The translations under genes and the position numbers were made by a program. The notes beneath the pieces are model-generated. The model was not told where the DNA came from. It saw only the letters and a program-made list of their open reading frames with translations, and did no database searches. Shown piece by piece: positions 1-62,490 of a stretch of 64,000 bases of DNA. Every line of letters begins with the position of its first letter. Within the stretch, counting starts at the first letter, position 1. Source of the stretch: Ascidia mentula (lineage: Eukaryota > Chordata > Ascidiacea > Phlebobranchia > Ascidiidae); the NCBI GenBank assembly GCA_947561715.1, contig OX387199.1, forward strand, positions 22,139,001 through 22,203,000. Direction: 5' to 3'.

Positions 1-829
1 AGAAACATCTGAGGCAAGTTGCAATCACTGCCCTTCCGCGTGCATTTGAACCCGTGCCCGTTCTGCCATCGGAGGTGGGACGAGCAATCGTTGCAGGTAT
101 CGTCATCACAGATGGTGGATCGATGGAGGCAGGTGGAGTCGGGACAACGGAAGTGCGTCGGGCATTCCATGTCGCATGGGACGCCAGGGTTACAAGGGTG
201 GACGAGGGAATCGCACAACTGACGTTTGGTTTTGTTGCAGTTCATGTTGGGGTCATCCGGGTTCAAATGGTTGTGACACGTGTTTGAATCGTCGAAACAT
301 TCGCAAGTTCGCACGAGACTGAAAGAGAAATAAGAAAATTATGTTTGTAAAATTAATAAATAGGGCTCACAATTTGAAAATGGTAATTGGTGAGCATATA
401 ATTCATACAACAGGAAGGGTCTTCAGTTTGCACTGAATGAATAAAGTTGACAAACAAACAGCATTTTAATAAAGGGTTAACCACTAGTGTCGCTGCAAAA
501 CCTGCTGTTTAAAGATCATATGTGCATTAAAATAAAATGAGAAAATTGCAATGTGGATTGCATGGCAACCATGTAACCCCTAAATACACATTCACCCCCA
601 AATTCAAGACAATAAAAAACACTTTAAATCAACCTAACTTGAGTTTGAGGCATATGACGTAGCATGACGACACAAATCTGGGGTTTCCCCGTCACAATAA
701 CATTCATCACTTAAGTCAGGGCAATCAATGACGTCATCACACACGCTTTTGCTGGAGATTATCGTTTCGTTGTCGTGGCAACGGAAGCAAGTGGAATTAA
801 ATTCAGCGAATATCGATTGTCTGACGTCG
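1..829 (-). pseudogene. Partial copy of the LDLa-module receptor gene (A exon and B exon)
   Basis: This is a near-identical copy of 19038-19873. The A-type exon occupies 1-318 and runs off the window. It encodes paired LDL-receptor class A modules with the CPTHFRCPDSTC and CNDCSS signatures. The B-type exon is at about 638-829 and has the CDDVIDCPDLSDEC calcium-binding signature. The A exon has an intact acceptor at 318/319. At the 3' end of the B exon the donor used by the paralogue (AG|GTGGGC) reads AG|TTAGG; only a GT one base earlier remains, which would change the phase. Similarity to the second copy stops at about 984, so no upstream exons or signal peptide follow. I read it as a truncated duplicate. 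It could still be the 3' half of a gene with different 5' exons, because the window cuts it. Confidence 0.7.
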
Positions 830-3612: not shown

Positions 3613-5424
3613 TGTTTTAGTTATAAATAAATCAACTCTATTTGATAAAATCTAAACATTCAATTTAGCGACTTGTTGACAGAAAAAAGTAACATTTGGG
3701 TAAATTTTACATATAGGACACATATCATATGTTAGATCAAAGATTTTTTTTGAGTATTTGTTTTCTTCACCTATACACCAACACGCTTGAAAATACCCAA
3801 AAGTAGTTACTCGATATCTGCGTGATCAATTCATCCAGATCTTGCCTTTCATCAAACTTTATGGTAACGTTTTGCGAGCCTGAAATTACCTTGTGCTTTG
3901 CTTTGTACGGAAATTTGATTCTGTGTAACTTCTAACTCCACAGTGTCTCTCTCTATATATATCCGACCCTTTGATTCTAAACACAATGTTTATTGTGATT
4001 GCTGTAAATGCTTTATTTCCAAAACGATGTTCGATGGATCGTTTTGCTTTCGGCCACGATTTCAAACCTGAATACCCGAAATTCTAAACGAGCGCATGTG
4101 GCGTTACCAACAAGCTTTTTGCATTGTTACGAAATAATATCGCTTAGCAACGTAAGCAATTTAACAAACACAGTTCGACGTGGATTATTCAGCGACAAAC
4201 TTTTCCCACAGTAATTTGACGATCAGATTACAAACCGACGCCGGATCAATGGGGAAAGTTTATAAAACTTAAACTAACAAGGAAGAGTCAGTTGATTAGC
4301 AAACAGTTTACAAAATCACACATACGTGAAAAAAGTTTTGAAACCTAAAAAAAAATTTAAAACACCTTCTGGTGATTCCCCCGGGGGTAAACACCATCAT
4401 ACACGTGTGTTTTGTTGATATATCTTGTGGTTGTACGTCTATGTATATGTGCCAACACTGTTAAGAGATTCGGAAACCTTGCGAACTAAAATTGACTGGC
4501 AAATGTTTTTGTTTTAAGTATAAGCTATGAAGGCAATGATGCTTTTCACAGTGAGTTGCGGAAAAGGTGAAGGATGTTTCGATCTAACAGGTCTTATCAG
4601 TGCAGCTATGGCATGACTTACAACGGTATTGTCAGCTAAATATATTTTTCTTTTATTTGTTTTTAATATATTTGTATTAAGTAGTTGGAATATTTGGGCT
4701 AGGAGCAGTCATGTGCAAAATATTTTTTTAATTTTAACTAGGGTGCATGGAATTACGGACCAAAGTGGGTTTCATGGAAACAAATTCTTGCACAGCTGCA
4801 GGGTAGGATGCGATTAAGTATGAGGCACTTGCTTCTTGTATGTGACGTATTGAGGTTTTGTGATACAACAATCGTTATTAATGACCAATTTAGGTTTTGT
4901 GACGGAATAATAAGTCTTTGTACAAGTTTATGTTTTAGCAAAAAAGTCAGCAATTTTGGCCCAACCATGTTACAAGCCGCAAACAATTACGTTGTGTGGG
5001 CAGCAAACCGCCTACAAGTTTTAAATGGCAAATAGTTTAGGATTTTTTTTGTAGTGGTAGATAATATAAAGACCTCAGGAATATTTCATTCCTTCTGCGG
5101 CAATCTTTCTTTCAATCCCCGGCGAGATGTTTTTGTCTGATATTAACTTTACGTTGAAATTATTTGGGAAAGCTTCACGCTTCGTCACATTAGCAAGAGA
5201 TTAAGTTCATATGCGAAATCATCACACGATGTTAATTTGAAGGCGTATAAGTGATGAGCGAATGATTGTGTTCATTTCTGTCTACAGATTTAATTAACCT
5301 TGCGGCTTAAAACGCATTTATTTGCATAGTTTTGCAAAGCAAACACCCAATTAGACGACCAATAACTTTAAATTTATATGTAGAGATTGATATGCTCTGT
5401 AGTTATTGATTTTGCAGTTCAAAT
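3613..5424. other. Gene-free spacer; diverged copy of the inverted upstream repeat
   Basis: No gene seen. The stretch at about 3760-4220 is a diverged copy of the left arm of the inverted repeat (5425-6095), in the same orientation, and includes the TATATATATCCGA-type run and the segment about TTGTTACGAAATAATATC. The rest is AT-rich sequence in which I see no structure. Confidence 0.5.
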
Positions 5425-19100: not shown

Positions 19101-22100
19101 TCTGCCATCGGAGGTGGGACGAGCAATCGTTGCAGGTATCATCATCACAGATGGTGGATCGATGGAGGCAGGTGGAGTCGGGACAACGGAAGTGCGTCGG
19201 GCATTCCATGTCGCACGGGACGCCAGGGTTACAAGGGTGGACGAGGGAATCGCACAACTGACGTTTGGTTTTGTTGCAGTTCATGTTGGGGTCATCCGGG
19301 TTCAAATGGTTGTGACACGTGTTTGAATCGTCGAAACATTCGCAAGTTCGCACGAGGCTGAAAGACAAATAAGAAAATTATGTTTGTAAAAGTAGTAAAT
19401 AGGGCTCACAATTTGGAAAATGGTAATTGGTGAGCATATAATTCATACAACAGGAAGGGCCTTCAGTTTGCACTCAATGAATAAAGTTGACAAACAAACA
19501 GCATTTTAATAAAGGGTTAACCACTAGTGTCGCTGCAAAACCTGCTGTTTAAAGATCATATGCGCATTAAAATAGAATGAGAAAATTGCAATGTGGATTG
19601 CATGGCAACCATGTAACCCCTAAATACACATTCACTCCTAAATTCAAGACAATAAGAGACACTTAACTTCACGCCCACCTTGGGTTTGAGGCATATGACG
19701 TAGCAAGACGACACAAATCTGGGGTTTCCCCGCCACAAGAACATTCATCACTTAAGTCAGGGCAATCGATGACGTCATCACACACGCTTTTGCTTGAGAT
19801 TATCGTTGCGTTGTCGTGGCAACGGAAGCAAGCGGAATTGTTGAATTCGGCGAATATCGATTGTCTGACGTCGCTTCAAACAAAGTGATGTTTTACTTGT
19901 ATAACTTAATTCACAACAGAAACTTGTTGATTGTTGGTAATTATTCGGTCTAACCAAATCATATAAATACAGAATACCCTCATGGTACATTAGCACCCTT
20001 GCCTGAGCGTTAAAATGATTTTGCTGCATTAATTTAATAAACTTTAACCATTTAGAATTATATCTTGCGGCAATGTAAAAGTAATGGTAACCGGTAACTC
20101 CATTCACATTTAGATAAGGTTTGGTAACAAAAATGTGATTTCTATGTACCTGGGATTTCCCAATAAAACCGTGCTGTTATCCTGGTTTACGTAACACAAG
20201 TCTATTGCGTCATCACAGTCCGCAATCCCGTCGAATAACAAGATTTGTGGCAGAACACAAGATCCCCCGTTCCTCGCGCACTTGAAACCGTGTCCGTTGT
20301 TCCATCTCTGTGATGACGAACAATCGTTGCACACGTCACCGTCACACACGGTTGACCTTGGTAGACACGTCATATCCGGACACCGGAAGTGGGAGGGGCA
20401 GAGCATGTCGCAGGGAAAGTCTTGGTTGCATGAGTTCGACAGGTGGCAAGCTGGAGGTGAAGTTTGGGCGCACGTGGTTTTGTTGAGAGTTAAGATATTG
20501 TGACAAATTCCGTTCGAATCAAAGCAGTCGCATTTCTTTATCATTCTGCGAAGTAAAAACGTGTAGATGAGCAAAGTGGAGTCAATAATATGATTTCTGT
20601 GAGCTGCAGGCCAAGAAGAGTCGCACCAAGCTGCACTGATGAGACCTTATGGGTCGAAACAGTGGCCATCTGTATGCAGCTCACAGAAAAAACATGTTTA
20701 GTTGTGGATGAATTTTTACCGAGACATGCATAAATTTGCCGGTGAATAATACAGCATTACAAGTGAAATATTAATTTGTTGTAGACGACATCATTAATTT
20801 AATATTTTTGAACACATCTCAGCCAAATTTTTTTCTAATATGTTCCTGTATTCATATGTGATGTGACTGTCGCCATATTTAAAGAAACTGTTTTCAATTT
20901 TACGCTTGCTTCGACGCAAACCCGGTGACCCTTAGTTGAAACTTAGGCCGCTTATAAATCCACTTACGTCGGGTGTTCTTCATATTTGCTGACATAACCA
21001 CATATTCCTTGTGCTTCCTTCTCACATTGGCATTCGTCCTTCAGGTTGGGGCAGTCAACCTTCCCATCACACACGTTTAAACTCGATACGATCGTGTGTT
21101 GTTCGTCTCGACACGCGAAACATATGGTGGAGTTAAATGAGGACCCGGTTCGGTTTCTGACGTCTCTGTAAATAAATTGTTTTGTGTTTGCAAAACATTA
21201 TTAGTCAGTAAACTTTAAATTTGCAGTTATATCGTTCCAAGCCAACCAGTGGGCCCAAAGCGTTTTACATCACGAAAAAGCGAAATGCAAAAAATGCAAA
21301 GTACATTACAGAATCAAGCCCAAGTTAAACCATGAACACCATAATCACTAATACGTAACTTTTACACCCACTTATATATTTCATTACAAACACATTAAAC
21401 TTACCTTGGGTCACCATTCAGATTACTCCCACTTTGAACATAGCATAAATCCGAACCATCGTCACAGTCAGAAATTCCATCAAACAGAACGTTTTGTGGC
21501 AGATTGCATAACCTTCCATTTCTCAAACACTTAAACCCGTGTCCATTGTCAAACCTTCTAGAAGACGGACAATCGTTGCAGAATTCATCATCACACAATA
21601 AAGCTCTTTGGCGACAACTTCCGTCCGGACAGCGATAAAAATCTGGACACCAACCGTCGCACAGTGTTTTACCGATGCATTGGGTGTGGCCTCGACAAAA
21701 CTCAACACGACGAATCGCACATCTGAAATGCAACCCAGCAAACGGGGCAGTGAGCAACTGAAATGCAACGCAGGTTTTTAATTGTTCTGGAAATTATTCT
21801 AATATAAAAGCATTGACACATTTTCGTGTGTACTTGAATTAATACAATAACCAGTACATGTAGTTATTTACGGCGCTAACGCCTTGCAAACGCAATATAT
21901 TGACTTTCTGAATTTCTATCAAACCATGCCAGCAATTGGCAAAGTCTTATCGTAAGTGGAGAATACAGGACTGCACAAAAATAAATTAACTAAAACAAAT
22001 TTTGCATTGCTGTTGGATGGCTTAACTCAACCTACAGGCTTAACTCAACTTACAGTATAGTTAAACGTACATTAAATATTCTGAAGTAAGGTTGGTTTCG

Positions 22101-50160: not shown

Positions 50161-53100
50161 ATGGAGGCATTAGAACTTCCAAGTGTGGACGTTCATTGCA
50201 AGACTGTGATGCAAAATCTTCATCGGTTGAAATGCAACGAAAAACTTTGTGACATGGCACTGGGTGCTGGAGGTGAGTTATCACAGAATATTTTATCAAA
50301 ATCAAGCTTACCTTTTTACCTACAACTCAGCCTTTTTCATGTTTTACTTAATCTATCAATATATTGTTAGTTTGTATTTGATCAAAAGTTCTGTAAACAC
50401 ATACTTGTGTCAGATTGGAAAAAATGGACTTTTGTGAAAATTTACCGATAATTTGTGCAATATTAATTAGCTAATGCATTACCATTTAAAAAATGTTGCG
50501 ATCGTCCGAGTAATTAATGATCGCCGCAACAAAATCCTCACGCATAAAACAAACTTTCCAATCTGATACTTGTGTGACACATTTATTTCTCTTTTCATTT
50601 ATACTTTTATGTTTAAAAAAAAAAAAAACGCTTCAGTATTTTTGATTTATGTTTTTTTTGCATTTTATGATATCATTTTTCCAGTTGCAACCTCTGTCAG
50701 TAGCACTTACGTCTATTTTGTTTTGACTCAGGACAAAAGTTTTTTGCCCACAAGTGCGTGGTGCTTGCTGCTTGTCCCATTCTTGAATCGTTCATTGATG
50801 AAACGCAGACTGAGTTCCCTTACGTTGTTTGCAATGAAGTTTCCTCAAAAGGTAATTATGGGTCATGTCCAGAATGAAAACATTGCATGCCTCTATTTAT
50901 GAGTAATTTTGATTATCTGACCAGTATAGATAAATCCTTTGGTACCACCAAGCAGAACAGACTGATCCTATGGTCCATATGACATTTTCCCTTAAGTTTC
51001 AAACAACGCATGTGTACCGGCAATCCAACATTAATCTGTTAGTTATTTTTTGTGCAGATTGGTAAAAAAATTTTGAAAATGTGAATTGTGCTACACACAC
51101 ATATATAACATTCATTCCAATCAGGAATCTGTGCAGTTAATGGTTGCCTGAATAGAAAAAATGATGTGTTTAAAGTAGAAAAAAACAAAACATTGCATTA
51201 ACATATATAAACAATATTGCATATAATTGGGCATATTATGTATTTTCTACCTACAGTGTGTTTTTTTTTCTGGTCAGGTTTGTCTTTATGGATTGACTAC
51301 ATCTATACTGGCATAGCACCCTCGTCTCTGGATGAACAATCAGAGTTCATCAAAGTGTGCGACACTTTTTTCATGTTTGGAAAACCTTTATCGACAGGTA
51401 TCAACATATTCTAACATTTGTCCATTTATGTTTTGTAATTTTACTCACAAATTTGTGCTTCATTGTATTGAAACATGTTTCTTTGTCGAAGCAGTGCCTG
51501 TTCATTTACACAGTAAGATGTCATCATAGTAATTTTGTAATTTATTTCAGATAAATCAAGCCCGGAAAAAGTTCCCAGCACTGAAGTTAAGAAACCCGGT
51601 CGAAAAAGAGGAGCCAAAAAAGCTAAAGCAGAACCAACTAAAACCTCAAGTACAAAAGAAAAACGAAAGTCAAAAGCTAATGATGACATGGTTCCTCTTG
51701 TTGATAACGATGTTGACAAGTTTACACTAGAAGACTTAATTGCTGAAACAGTTCAAGACGTAGATCTTGGTTACAGCGATGTTGAAATTAGCGATGATGA
51801 AGATGTGGCTGCAGAAGAACCTGTAAAGCCAAAACGTGCACGGAAAAGTAAGGAAAGCATTGGTAAGCCAACTCCAAAGAAAACCACAGCAAAGAAAACA
51901 GCTCCAAAAGTTGCAAAAATTAAAAAAAATACACCTAAAAAGGAAAAATTTTCAAAAACAGGCCGGAAAAATTTGAAAATTCCAAAAGAAGCTCCATTTC
52001 TATGCCCAAGAGAAGATTGTGATTTTCTTGGTGACGATAGACCACAACTTTTAAAGCATTACAAGTAAAGTGGGGTTTATAATTGACATTGTACATATAT
52101 TTTTTTATGCTAATCAGTTTTTACTTTACTGCTTTTCACAATTTTTCTTATAAACCAGGATTCTGTAACATTTTAAACACTGCATCTTTACAAATTATGT
52201 CAAAACTTGGATGACTTTGCATGCAACCTATATGCACATGCTAAATTATGTTTACATTTTTTTAACCCAACGCTGTGTTGTGGCAGCATCTTCATAGGAA
52301 TTTCAATTGGTAAATTCAAACAATTTCCAGAATTTAAGCACAAATTTAAATACCAGGCATATCGCGCCCAACTCATCGCCTTAATAAACCAACACATTGT
52401 TTTCTTTTAACAAAATATCCTTTGTTCAAGGAAACACCAACAGAAGAAGTTCAAATGCAAGGAATGTGGTTCAGTTTTCTTGATATACGACGTACTGAAA
52501 GCCCACGAACTGAGCCATGAAGGAATAATACTACCAGCGGAAGCTCCATTCAAGTGCCCAGCTACTCACTGCCCAGTTATTTGTGAAAACCAGGTTCTGT
52601 TATGGAGGCATTACAAGTAAGTGTTGTAAAGGAATATTAACAGCTCCGATTGTGCCCAGTAAAGTGATCGCAACCTTGCCCCACATTTTTGGGGGATTTA
52701 AAGCAATACAATATTTTTGCAGCTGGTATATATGCAATATATTTTTTGCAACATGCTGATTTAATTGATAAATGTAATATATAGAGAGAAAACGTCAAAA
52801 AATTGACTACAGGAATCAGCCTTTGCAAGTTGGTGACCGACGGATCTGTCTTTACGAATCAATATAATTCCTAGAGCTCCAAAGGGAGTAAAAGACGATC
52901 AGCGCCAGAATACGATGTTTATTTCACAGAAATATTAATTTCGCCTATTGGCATCTTCAGTTTCTGTCTTATTTAATCTATTTGAATAAGACAGAAACTG
53001 AAGATGCCAATAGGCGAAATTAATATTTCTGTGAAATAAACATCGTATTCTGGCGCTGATCGTCTTTTACTCCCTTTGGAGCTCTAGGAATTGTAATATA

Positions 53101-61029: not shown

Positions 61030-61510
61030 GGGGGTAATTGAAATCATTTACTTTATACCTTGTACTGTGTCCACGATAGGTAACTTTGTTATACGTTAGA
61101 GTAGTCACGCTATACCTTGCACTATGTCCATGATGGGTAAGTTTGTTAAACGTTAGAGTAGTCACGCTATACATTGCACTATGTCTATGATAGGTAAGTT
61201 TGTTAAACGTTAGAGTAGTCACACTATACCTTGCACTATGTCCATGATAGGTAAGTTTGTTAAACGTTAGAGTAGTCACGCTATACCTTGCACTATGTCC
61301 ATGATGGGTAAGTTTGTTAAACGTTAGAGTAGTCACGCTATACCTTGCACTATGTCCATGATAGGTAAGTTTGTTAAACGTTAAGGTAGTCACGCTATAC
61401 CTTACACTATGTCCATGGTAGGTAAGTTTGTTAAACGTTAAGGTAGTCACGCTATACCTTGCACTATGTCCGTGATGGGTAACTTTGTTAAACGTTGAAC
61501 AATTAACGAA
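61030..61510 (-). repeat. 57-bp tandem repeats, left arm
   Basis: About eight units. On the minus strand each unit reads in frame as FNKLTYHGHSARYSVTTLT, because 57 is a multiple of three, producing an ORF of 199 codons that I do not consider a gene. Confidence 0.85.
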
Positions 61511-61544
61511 CTTACCTATGATGGGCATAGTGCAAGGTATAGCG

Positions 61545-62490
61545 TGGCTAATCTAACGTTTAACAAACTTACCTATCATGGACATAGTGCAAGGTACAGC
61601 GTGACTACCTTAACAATTAAGAAACTTACCTATGATGGACATAGTGCAAGGTATACCGTGACTACCCCAACGTTTAACAAACTTACCTATCATGGACATA
61701 GTGCAAGGTATAGCGTGACTACCCTAACGTTTAACAAACTTACCTATCATGGACATAGTGCAAGGTATAGCGTGACTACCCTAACAATTAAGAAACTTAC
61801 CTATCATGGACATAGTGCAAGGTATACCGTGACTACCCCAACGTTTAACAAACTTACCTATCATGGAAATAGTGCAAGGTATAGCGTGACTACCCTAACG
61901 TTTAACAAACTTACCTATCATGGACATAGTGCAAGGTATAGCGTGACTACCCTAACAATTAACAAACTTACCTATCATGGACATAGTGCAAGGTATACCG
62001 CGACTACCCCGACGTTTAACAAACTTAGCTATCATGGACATAGTGCAAGGTATAGCGTGACTACCCTAACGTTTAACAAACTTACCTATCATGGACATAG
62101 TGCAAGGTATAGCGTGACTACCCTAACGTTTAACAAACTTACCTATCATGGACATAGTGCAAGGTATAGCGTGACTACTCTAACGTTTAACAAACTTACC
62201 TATCATGGACATAGTGCAAGGTATAGCGTGACTACCCTAACGTTTAACAAACTTACCTATCATGGACATAGTGCAAGGTATAGCGTGACTACTCTAACGT
62301 TTAACAAACTTACCCATCATGGACACAGTGCAAGGTATAGCGTGACTACCCTAACAATTAAGAAACTTACCTATCATGGACATAGTGCAAGGTATAGCGT
62401 GACTACTCTAAAGTTTAACAAACTTACCTATCATGGACACAGTGCAAGGTATAGCGTGATTCCCGTAACAATTAATGAAGTTACCTATCG
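61545..62490 (+). repeat. 57-bp tandem repeats, right arm
   Basis: About 16-17 units, open as a 316-codon frame of the same 19-residue repeat. A variant unit with ACAATTAAGAAACTTACC recurs at intervals of two to four units in the left half of the arm, a higher-order pattern. Confidence 0.88.

What the first reader, a model, noticed from the sequence alone, without database searches (positions are those of the whole stretch)
20629..20681. Complete type I hammerhead ribozyme inside an intron, antisense to the receptor gene
Every conserved core element is in place: CTGATGA, a 4-bp stem II, GAAA, a short stem III, the GTA cleavage triplet, and a 7-bp stem I that pairs perfectly across the motif. 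Hammerheads are known in animal genomes, often in retroelements or as lone copies; this one sits between two LDLa exons on the opposite strand. An upstream 12-base segment could pair with the same 3' strand and switch the ribozyme off, suggesting a regulated or dimeric form.
Basis: partly seen in the sequence, partly recalled or inferred. Interest (0 to 1): 0.82.

Follow-up and report, generated by a model that had tools for sequence, protein, structure and literature searches.

The report
Hammerhead ribozyme in a retrozyme insertion
The self-cleaving RNA motif is really there, but it is one decaying copy of a small mobile element found throughout this sea-squirt genome, and the shape of its insertions suggests that a particular class of retrotransposon copies it around.

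Summary
The hammerhead motif is present and correctly read: type I, cleavage expected between 20674 and 20675. It is not a lone intronic regulator. It is the right arm of a 123-bp insertion (20565-20687) with a 10-bp target-site duplication (TSD; 20555-20564 / 20688-20697). The left arm is an inverted piece of the same element's 3' end; this explains the "12-base competing segment" (a 15-bp perfect inverted repeat). The genome is an ascidian's by its mitochondrial code. It holds hundreds of related sites, including one insertion of 283-bp tandem units with hammerheads: a non-LTR retrozyme, a known kind. Fourteen of 14 paralogous intron copies found have a broken core, CTCATGA, so host use is unlikely. 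The most interesting part is anatomy: adjacent opposite arms are head-to-head, never tail-to-tail (22 to 0; 11 to 0 in a partly overlapping set), with ends clustered in two zones about 30 nt apart. GIY-YIG elements taken as Penelope-like elements (PLEs) in this genome show the same (17 to 0). This supports mobilisation by PLEs, so far proposed mainly from co-occurrence. The family hammerhead is predicted to work as a dimer. Nothing was assayed.

The parts
20555..20564 (.). left copy of the target-site duplication, AAAAACGTGT
   Evidence: 9 of 10 identical to the right copy; by my reading of the alignment both copies are 10/10 identical in 4 of the 15 intron copies (L008, L009, L012, L013)
20565..20612 (-). 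left (inverted) arm of the insertion: reverse complement of the element's own 3' end including the ~30-nt tail
   Evidence: 20566-20609 matches the 283-bp unit on the minus strand at 81%, E 0.001, outer end at unit position 45; the inner boundary is approximate
20613..20687 (+). right arm of the insertion, carrying the hammerhead
   Evidence: 20619-20691 matches unit positions 229..283 then 1..17 at 86%; outer end near unit position 17
20629..20681 (+). type I hammerhead ribozyme, intact core
   Evidence: 15 pairs listed; Rfam sub-threshold hit
20674..20675 (+). expected cleavage site GUA|UGCAGC
   Evidence: position follows from the hammerhead core (inference; not assayed)
20663..20669 (+). 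stem III loop TGGCCAT with the palindrome TGGCCA, predicted dimer contact
   Evidence: stem III strand: dimer -18.7 kcal/mol against -1.5 for the hairpin
20594..20608 (.). 5' half of the 15-bp perfect inverted repeat with 20675-20689 that competes with stem I
   Evidence: folding
20688..20697 (.). right copy of the target-site duplication, AAAAACATGT

Best explanation
The hammerhead lies in a short, 5'-truncated, head-to-head insertion of an ascidian non-LTR retrozyme with a 283-bp unit. Inferred life cycle: a tandem genomic array is transcribed; hammerheads in the multimer, probably paired as dimers through their palindromic stem III, cut it into 283-nt units that may circularise. A Penelope-like reverse transcriptase / GIY-YIG endonuclease in trans then primes cDNA synthesis from both cut DNA ends, in either of two internal start zones about 30 nt apart just downstream of the ribozyme. 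The two cDNAs join head to head, giving an insertion with 3' ends facing outward, one arm often carrying the ~30-nt tail, and a TSD of roughly 10-20 bp. The window copy is such a product, fixed in an intron before the host gene was amplified; it has no evident host role, and its inverted arm should trap the ribozyme in an inactive hairpin. Shown from sequence: the anatomy, the copies, the orientation bias, TSDs in a minority of insertions, the broken paralogues. Inferred: cleavage, dimers, circles, and the identity of the enzyme.
For: Copies: 46 matches (40 of 1132 first-look candidates scored); 92 exact core-pattern matches, reversed control 0; 452 tip matches with up to 3 mismatches in 35, control 0. 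Unit: L091 holds 3.5 tandem 283-bp units (TRF, 99% matches), four hammerheads with intact core (one with a stem III mismatch) plus a fifth in the inverted arm, and an 11- or 12-bp TSD. Window copy: minus arm with outer end at unit 45, plus arm at 17; TSD. Family: 71 distinct composites; adjacent arms 22 minus-plus, 0 plus-minus, 3 and 2 same-strand; of 93 outer ends 41 lie at unit 1-30, 41 at 31-65, 11 elsewhere; TSD score 9 or more in 17 of 67 against 42 of 1340 mismatched-flank controls. Second, partly overlapping set: 40 insertions, 11 minus-plus, 0 plus-minus. Local PLEs: 121 GIY-YIG matches, frames up to 892 aa; neighbours within 6 kb 17 minus-plus, 0 plus-minus; 3 of 3 close pairs fetched are inverted repeats of 544-612 nt at 99.5-100% identity, 2 of 3 with a 12-bp TSD and arms differing by a tail; 6 of 6 fetched 3' regions, about four types, hold by eye a minimal hammerhead. 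Precedents: inverted pLTR, 31-bp tail, 9-bp TSD (PMC3846280, passages); both target strands extended, two adjacent internal RT start sites that match the tail (PMC11167929, parts 1-2 of 4).
Against: No RNA evidence and no assay. No gathering-score Rfam hit in the window or 10 relatives; a genome search with RF00163 found none, though its controls rang nowhere. ViennaRNA does not favour the monomer hammerhead: P about 0.05 for the window 60-mer, 0.025 for an L091 60-mer. Copies show no purifying selection on the core: 14 of 29 distinct tip-chosen hammerheads have an intact core; mismatches per site 0.066 in the core, 0.046 elsewhere. No similarity between a retrozyme end and a PLE end was shown. 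L061-L090 were chosen by a tip that includes the tail, which inflates the 31-65 class. Some of the 17 TSDs are doubtful (L066 is a T run, L078 is element sequence). PMC3846280 explains head-to-head PLE copies by self-priming on an antisense template, not by priming from both DNA ends.
Confidence: 0.77

Rival explanations
1. A host-recruited intronic ribozyme that regulates the receptor gene or an antisense transcript, switched by the upstream segment.
For: Intact core and a perfect competing pairing in the window copy.
Against: 14 of 14 paralogous copies found read CTCATGA, which changes the invariant G5 (the role of G5 is recalled); the switch strand is the kind of inverted arm seen in other insertions; the trapped fold is favoured by about 13 kcal/mol; the gene's own transcript carries the complement, which is no ribozyme.
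Confidence: 0.03
2. A DNA transposon of the MITE type whose terminal inverted repeats contain hammerheads.
For: Inverted termini and TSDs; some insertions have outward hammerheads in both arms.
Against: Arms are of unequal length with variable inner junctions, many copies show one arm only, units occur head-to-tail at 283 bp inside one TSD-bounded insertion, TSD lengths vary, and ends fall in two zones rather than at one point.
Confidence: 0.04
3. A retrozyme moved by a LINE or another reverse transcriptase, the inverted arms arising by twin priming or self-priming.
For: 5' inversion by twin priming is known in LINE-1 (recalled); animal retrozymes have been proposed to use LINEs or PLEs (PMC7229834); 150 RVT_1 matches were scored here, some in frames of over 1200 aa.
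Against: Internal start zones with an optional ~30-nt tail and the same head-to-head geometry are found in the GIY-YIG elements of this genome and in published PLEs; no poly-A end was noticed in the listing.
Confidence: 0.15

Closest known systems
Metazoan non-LTR retrozymes (Cervera and de la Pena 2020, PMC7229834; parts 1-2 of 6, section 14 and passages seen)
   Same: Type I hammerhead in 170-400 bp units, single to tandem copies, GC below 50%, TSDs longer than 4 bp, co-existing PLEs with minimal hammerheads
   Different: Head-to-head insertions with an optional tail are described here; the main text of that paper has 0 occurrences of 'inverted', 'tunicat' and 'ascidian' (supplement not seen). 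Stem III loop palindrome and a shared 14-bp dimer stem are predicted
Newt and axolotl hammerheads acting as dimers (same paper, passages)
   Same: Short stem III, in one axolotl type capped by a palindromic loop; dimers more active there, predicted here
   Different: There 1-2 bp and a tetraloop; here 4 bp and a 7-nt loop containing TGGCCA; activity not tested here
Penelope-like elements with minimal hammerheads (PMC11167929 parts 1-2 of 4; PMC3846280 passages)
   Same: Head-to-head inverted arms, tandem copies, ~30-nt tail, short TSD, internal RT start sites, AC-rich start region
   Different: PLEs encode RT and GIY-YIG endonuclease; this element encodes nothing, and its hammerhead has a 4-bp stem III rather than the 2-bp palindromes read in 6 of 6 fetched local PLE ends

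Membership tests
Type I hammerhead ribozyme | conserved catalytic core with three helices, open at stem I | tested here: met
   sub-threshold Rfam hit
Type I hammerhead ribozyme | gathering score of an Rfam hammerhead model | tested here: not met
   25.1 bits against 48.5; none in the window
Type I hammerhead ribozyme | loop 1 - loop 2 tertiary contact | not tested
   no internal loop in stem I is evident by eye; PMC7229834 reports self-cleaving mussel hammerheads lacking most of the conserved contact nucleotides
Type I hammerhead ribozyme | self-cleavage | not testable with these tools
   needs in vitro transcription
Metazoan non-LTR retrozyme | type I hammerhead in tandem units of ~170-400 bp | tested here: met
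   283-bp units, 3.5 copies, TRF 99% matches; further multi-piece insertions. The window copy itself is a partial unit
Metazoan non-LTR retrozyme | many dispersed copies and TSD longer than 4 bp | tested here: met
   TSD score 9 or more in 17 of 67 against 42 of 1340 controls
Metazoan non-LTR retrozyme | GC below 50% | tested here: met
   unit is 23% C and 24% G (TRF line)
Metazoan non-LTR retrozyme | no LTR, primer-binding site or polypurine tract | not tested
   not searched for
Metazoan non-LTR retrozyme | circular and linear RNAs of unit length | not testable with these tools
   no RNA data on hand
Penelope-like element | ORF with RT and GIY-YIG endonuclease | tested here: not met
   the insertion is 123 bp and the unit 283 bp, too short to encode them
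Penelope-like element (insertion signature only) | head-to-head arms, optional ~30-nt tail, short TSD | tested here: met
   for the retrozyme; for local GIY-YIG elements
Penelope-like element (the local helper candidates) | reverse-transcriptase domain in the same frame as GIY-YIG | tested here: inconclusive

The most novel reading that the evidence does not exclude
Animal retrozymes carry the integration signature of Penelope-like elements (both DNA ends primed, two internal start zones about 30 nt apart, head-to-head products), so PLEs are their mobilising machinery, and the multimeric RNA is cut by double hammerheads that share a palindromic stem III in both the parasite and its helper.
Probability: 0.48. 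Interest if true: 0.6.

Novelty: new member of a known kind. Interest (0 to 1): 0.42.

Why it matters
Which enzyme moves animal retrozymes has been argued mainly from co-existence, shared hammerheads and tandem structure (PMC7229834, PMC7761336; passages). Insertions with the detailed PLE signature, in a genome with many long GIY-YIG frames, turn that into a testable pairing of parasite and helper. It also shows how an isolated intronic ribozyme can be a retroelement scar rather than a regulator: the apparent switch is a by-product of integration.

Tried and rejected
First thought was a MITE with hammerheads in its terminal repeats (after); rejected when arms proved unequal and a TSD-bounded tandem insertion was found. 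A type III reading, suggested by the best Rfam hit, was rejected: a pair is marked non-standard in its stem I there, and the type I pairing is complete. Rfam on 10 relatives gave nothing at gathering score. RF00163 over the genome gave nothing, but its controls rang nowhere, so it is uninformative. Covariation of stems was not pursued: copies are close relatives. Purifying selection on the core was tested and not found. The loop III palindrome was tested by shuffling: 372 of 5000 shuffles reach 6 for TGGCCAT, so that loop alone is weak; 174, 117, 38, 746 and 41 of 5000 for five other loops; of 34 loops that I copied from the listing (completeness not checked), 21 hold a palindrome of 4 or more and 13 none. 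A TSD for the third PLE pair (L101) and for the window palindrome at 52.9 kb was not found.

Selection of loci: composites come from 76 loci brought in by similarity to the window (L016-L030), by core pattern (L031-L060), by tip pattern (L061-L090) and L091. L053-L055 (another subfamily) were left out, L048 and L049 also; alignments under 28 positions were dropped, and duplicates. The 22 minus-plus composites come from these groups as 5, 6, 10 and 1. The window copy (L056) is not among the 22: its short left arm missed the threshold and was found.

Full report
The motif. One search shows, on the + strand, AGCTGCA 20629-20635, CTGATGA 20636-20642, GACC-TTATG-GGTC, GAAA 20656-20659, ACAG-TGGCCAT-CTGT and, after A20674, TGCAGCT 20675-20681. 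The 15 pairs of the type I hammerhead (7, 4 and 4) were checked by script. Rfam reports it only below threshold (25.1 bits, gathering 48.5), and nothing in the window reaches a gathering score. The pattern GCTGCACTGATGA-N8..20-GAAAC-N5..20-TATGCAGC has 92 exact matches in the genome of 195,842,439 bases and none for the reversed pattern, so the motif belongs to a real family.

The organism. The single COX1 match lies on contig 79. Its frame has 18 AGA/AGG codons; under the ascidian mitochondrial code they read glycine, in stretches such as GGFGNW and DPGGGGDPILYQ (that these glycines are conserved is recalled). So the genome is taken to be a tunicate's. The species was not identified.

The element. 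A search with the window stretch gave 46 matches (40 of 1132 candidates scored): the window itself, 14 places at 21.67-22.12 Mb of the same contig that match nearly the whole query, and dispersed places matching mainly the part around the ribozyme. A longer relative led to a 283-bp unit. L091 is one insertion bounded by an 11- or 12-bp TSD: 3.5 head-to-tail 283-bp units (TRF 99% matches), four hammerheads with intact core and a GUC site, one of them with a stem III mismatch, and a partial unit in inverted orientation with a fifth hammerhead. This is the architecture of metazoan non-LTR retrozymes: type I hammerhead, 170-400 bp, tandem, low GC, TSDs above 4 bp (PMC7229834; parts 1-2 of 6, section 14 and passages).

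The window copy. Against the unit, the window gives a minus-strand arm 20566-20609 ending outward at unit position 45 and a plus-strand arm 20619-20691 ending near 17. Flanks AAAAACGTGT and AAAAACATGT fit a 10-bp TSD; by my reading the two copies are identical in L008, L009, L012 and L013 of the 15 intron copies. The insertion is thus 20565-20687. On the minus strand it ends about 17 bases upstream of a plausible splice acceptor (CAG, 20546-20548; inference), antisense to the frames of the presumed host gene. Of 5 such frames, Pfam sees LDLa below cut-off in 1 and nothing in the two nearest.

No host function evident. All 14 paralogous intron copies found have CTCATGA where the window has CTGATGA; more may exist, since only the best candidates were scored. 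In trees of the flank and of the element the window copy falls among the others, and it shares TTATGGGTC with L002-L005, which favours a back-change or gene conversion in the window over an ancestral intact core. The trees are midpoint-rooted without an outgroup, so retention of the ancestral state is not excluded; nor is an assembly error. With its left arm the RNA folds into a long hairpin: -41.9 kcal/mol against -28.7 with the hammerhead enforced, P about 3e-10. Without the left arm P is 9.8e-05 for 20613-20687 and about 0.05 for a 60-mer. These are equilibrium figures without tertiary contacts or magnesium.

Dimers. For an L091 unit the monomer hammerhead is not the best fold (P 0.025 for a 60-mer), but two 54-nt strands co-fold at -47.9 kcal/mol (one 60-mer alone: -17.5) into a double hammerhead whose stem III strands pair with each other over 14 bp, with a bulged U on each side. 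For the window's stem III strand alone the dimer is -18.7 against -1.5 kcal/mol. The 6 PLE 3' regions fetched, about four types, carry by eye minimal hammerheads whose stem III is ACGU or AGCU, self-complementary. PMC7761336 (passages) says such PLE motifs may self-cleave as dimers. Dimeric action here is a prediction, and the palindrome in TGGCCAT alone is not statistically striking (372 of 5000 shuffles).

Insertion signature. Mapping the unit onto loci L016-L091 and removing duplicates gave 71 composites. Adjacent arms are minus-plus 22 times and plus-minus never (same strand 3 and 2). Of 93 outer ends, 41 fall at unit 1-30, 41 at 31-65 and 11 elsewhere; the ends are BLAST ends and scatter within each zone. 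Several composites have one end of each class (for example L076 13/56, L084 9/62, L082 9/46). TSDs scoring 9 or more occur in 17 of 67 spans against 42 of 1340 mismatched-flank controls; a few of the 17 are doubtful (L066 a T run, L078 element sequence). In a second, partly overlapping set, the rows, 40 insertions have 11 minus-plus and 0 plus-minus junctions. Loci L061-L090 were picked by a tip that includes the tail, so the share of tailed ends is inflated; the orientation result should not depend on that, and 6 of the 22 minus-plus composites come from loci chosen by the ribozyme pattern alone.

The same in local PLEs. GIY-YIG matches number 121, from 150 scored of 382 candidates, with frames up to 892 aa. 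Neighbours within 6 kb are minus-plus 17, plus-plus 5, minus-minus 1, plus-minus 0. Three close pairs were fetched: each is an inverted repeat of 544-612 nt at 99.5-100% identity with 3' ends outward. L099 and L100 have 12-bp TSDs and one arm longer by a tail of roughly 40 nt; L101 also has unequal arms but no TSD was found. I call these elements PLEs from their GIY-YIG domain, long frames, tandem and head-to-head copies and minimal hammerheads. In rotifer PLEs, inverted pLTRs, a 31-bp tail and 9-10 bp TSDs are described, with self-priming on an antisense template as that paper's favoured cause of the head-to-head form (PMC3846280, passages). A lizard PLE protein extends both target strands and starts reverse transcription at two adjacent internal sites whose interval is the tail (PMC11167929, parts 1-2 of 4). 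The ascidian retrozyme fits this in geometry, in the spacing of the two zones and in an AC-rich stretch (TATACACAA) at the first.

What is known and what is not. PLEs as candidate mobilisers of animal retrozymes are in print (PMC7229834; PMC7761336; PMC8969392; PMC11722881; passages only). I saw no description of head-to-head retrozyme insertions with tails in the listings or the passages read; these cover only an open-licence library, and most listed papers were not opened. Key papers (Cervera and de la Pena 2014, Lunse 2017, Craig 2021) are not held. For tunicates the listings led to one report: 9 type I hammerhead loci in Didemnum vexillum (PMC8704543, passage). The family is therefore a new member of a known kind; the PLE signature is the part worth following.

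Verdict. Observation right; lone or regulatory reading not supported; retrozyme membership well supported by DNA; PLE mobilisation probable; catalysis, circles and dimers untested. After rechecking, the odds were lowered slightly because the helper's reverse-transcriptase domain is unconfirmed.

Noticed in passing
window 52863-53095: A near-perfect palindrome (114-bp arms, 98% complementary, 5-nt centre); both arms contain CTGAAGATGCCAATAGGCGAAA facing outward, by eye a PLE-type minimal hammerhead with an ATTAAT stem III. Looks like a PLE-derived head-to-head insertion; no TSD found.
   Followed up: partly
window 4575-4618, minus strand: A decayed retrozyme hammerhead (CTGATAAGACC...GAAAC), 84% identical to the unit over 44 positions, with G8 changed to A.
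   Followed up: partly
G000 C52 21.67-22.16 Mb: The presumed host gene, with LDLa-like cysteine-rich frames, is amplified; at least 15 copies of this intron lie within 0.5 Mb.
   Followed up: partly
L053-L055, L099 near 2268 (minus): A second retrozyme subfamily with a longer stem III (for example loop TGCGTGTACACACC, palindromic centre) and a different body.
   Followed up: no
window 61054-62489: 57-bp tandem repeats in two adjacent blocks of opposite strand (7.8 and 17.3 copies), open in frame over long stretches.
   Followed up: no
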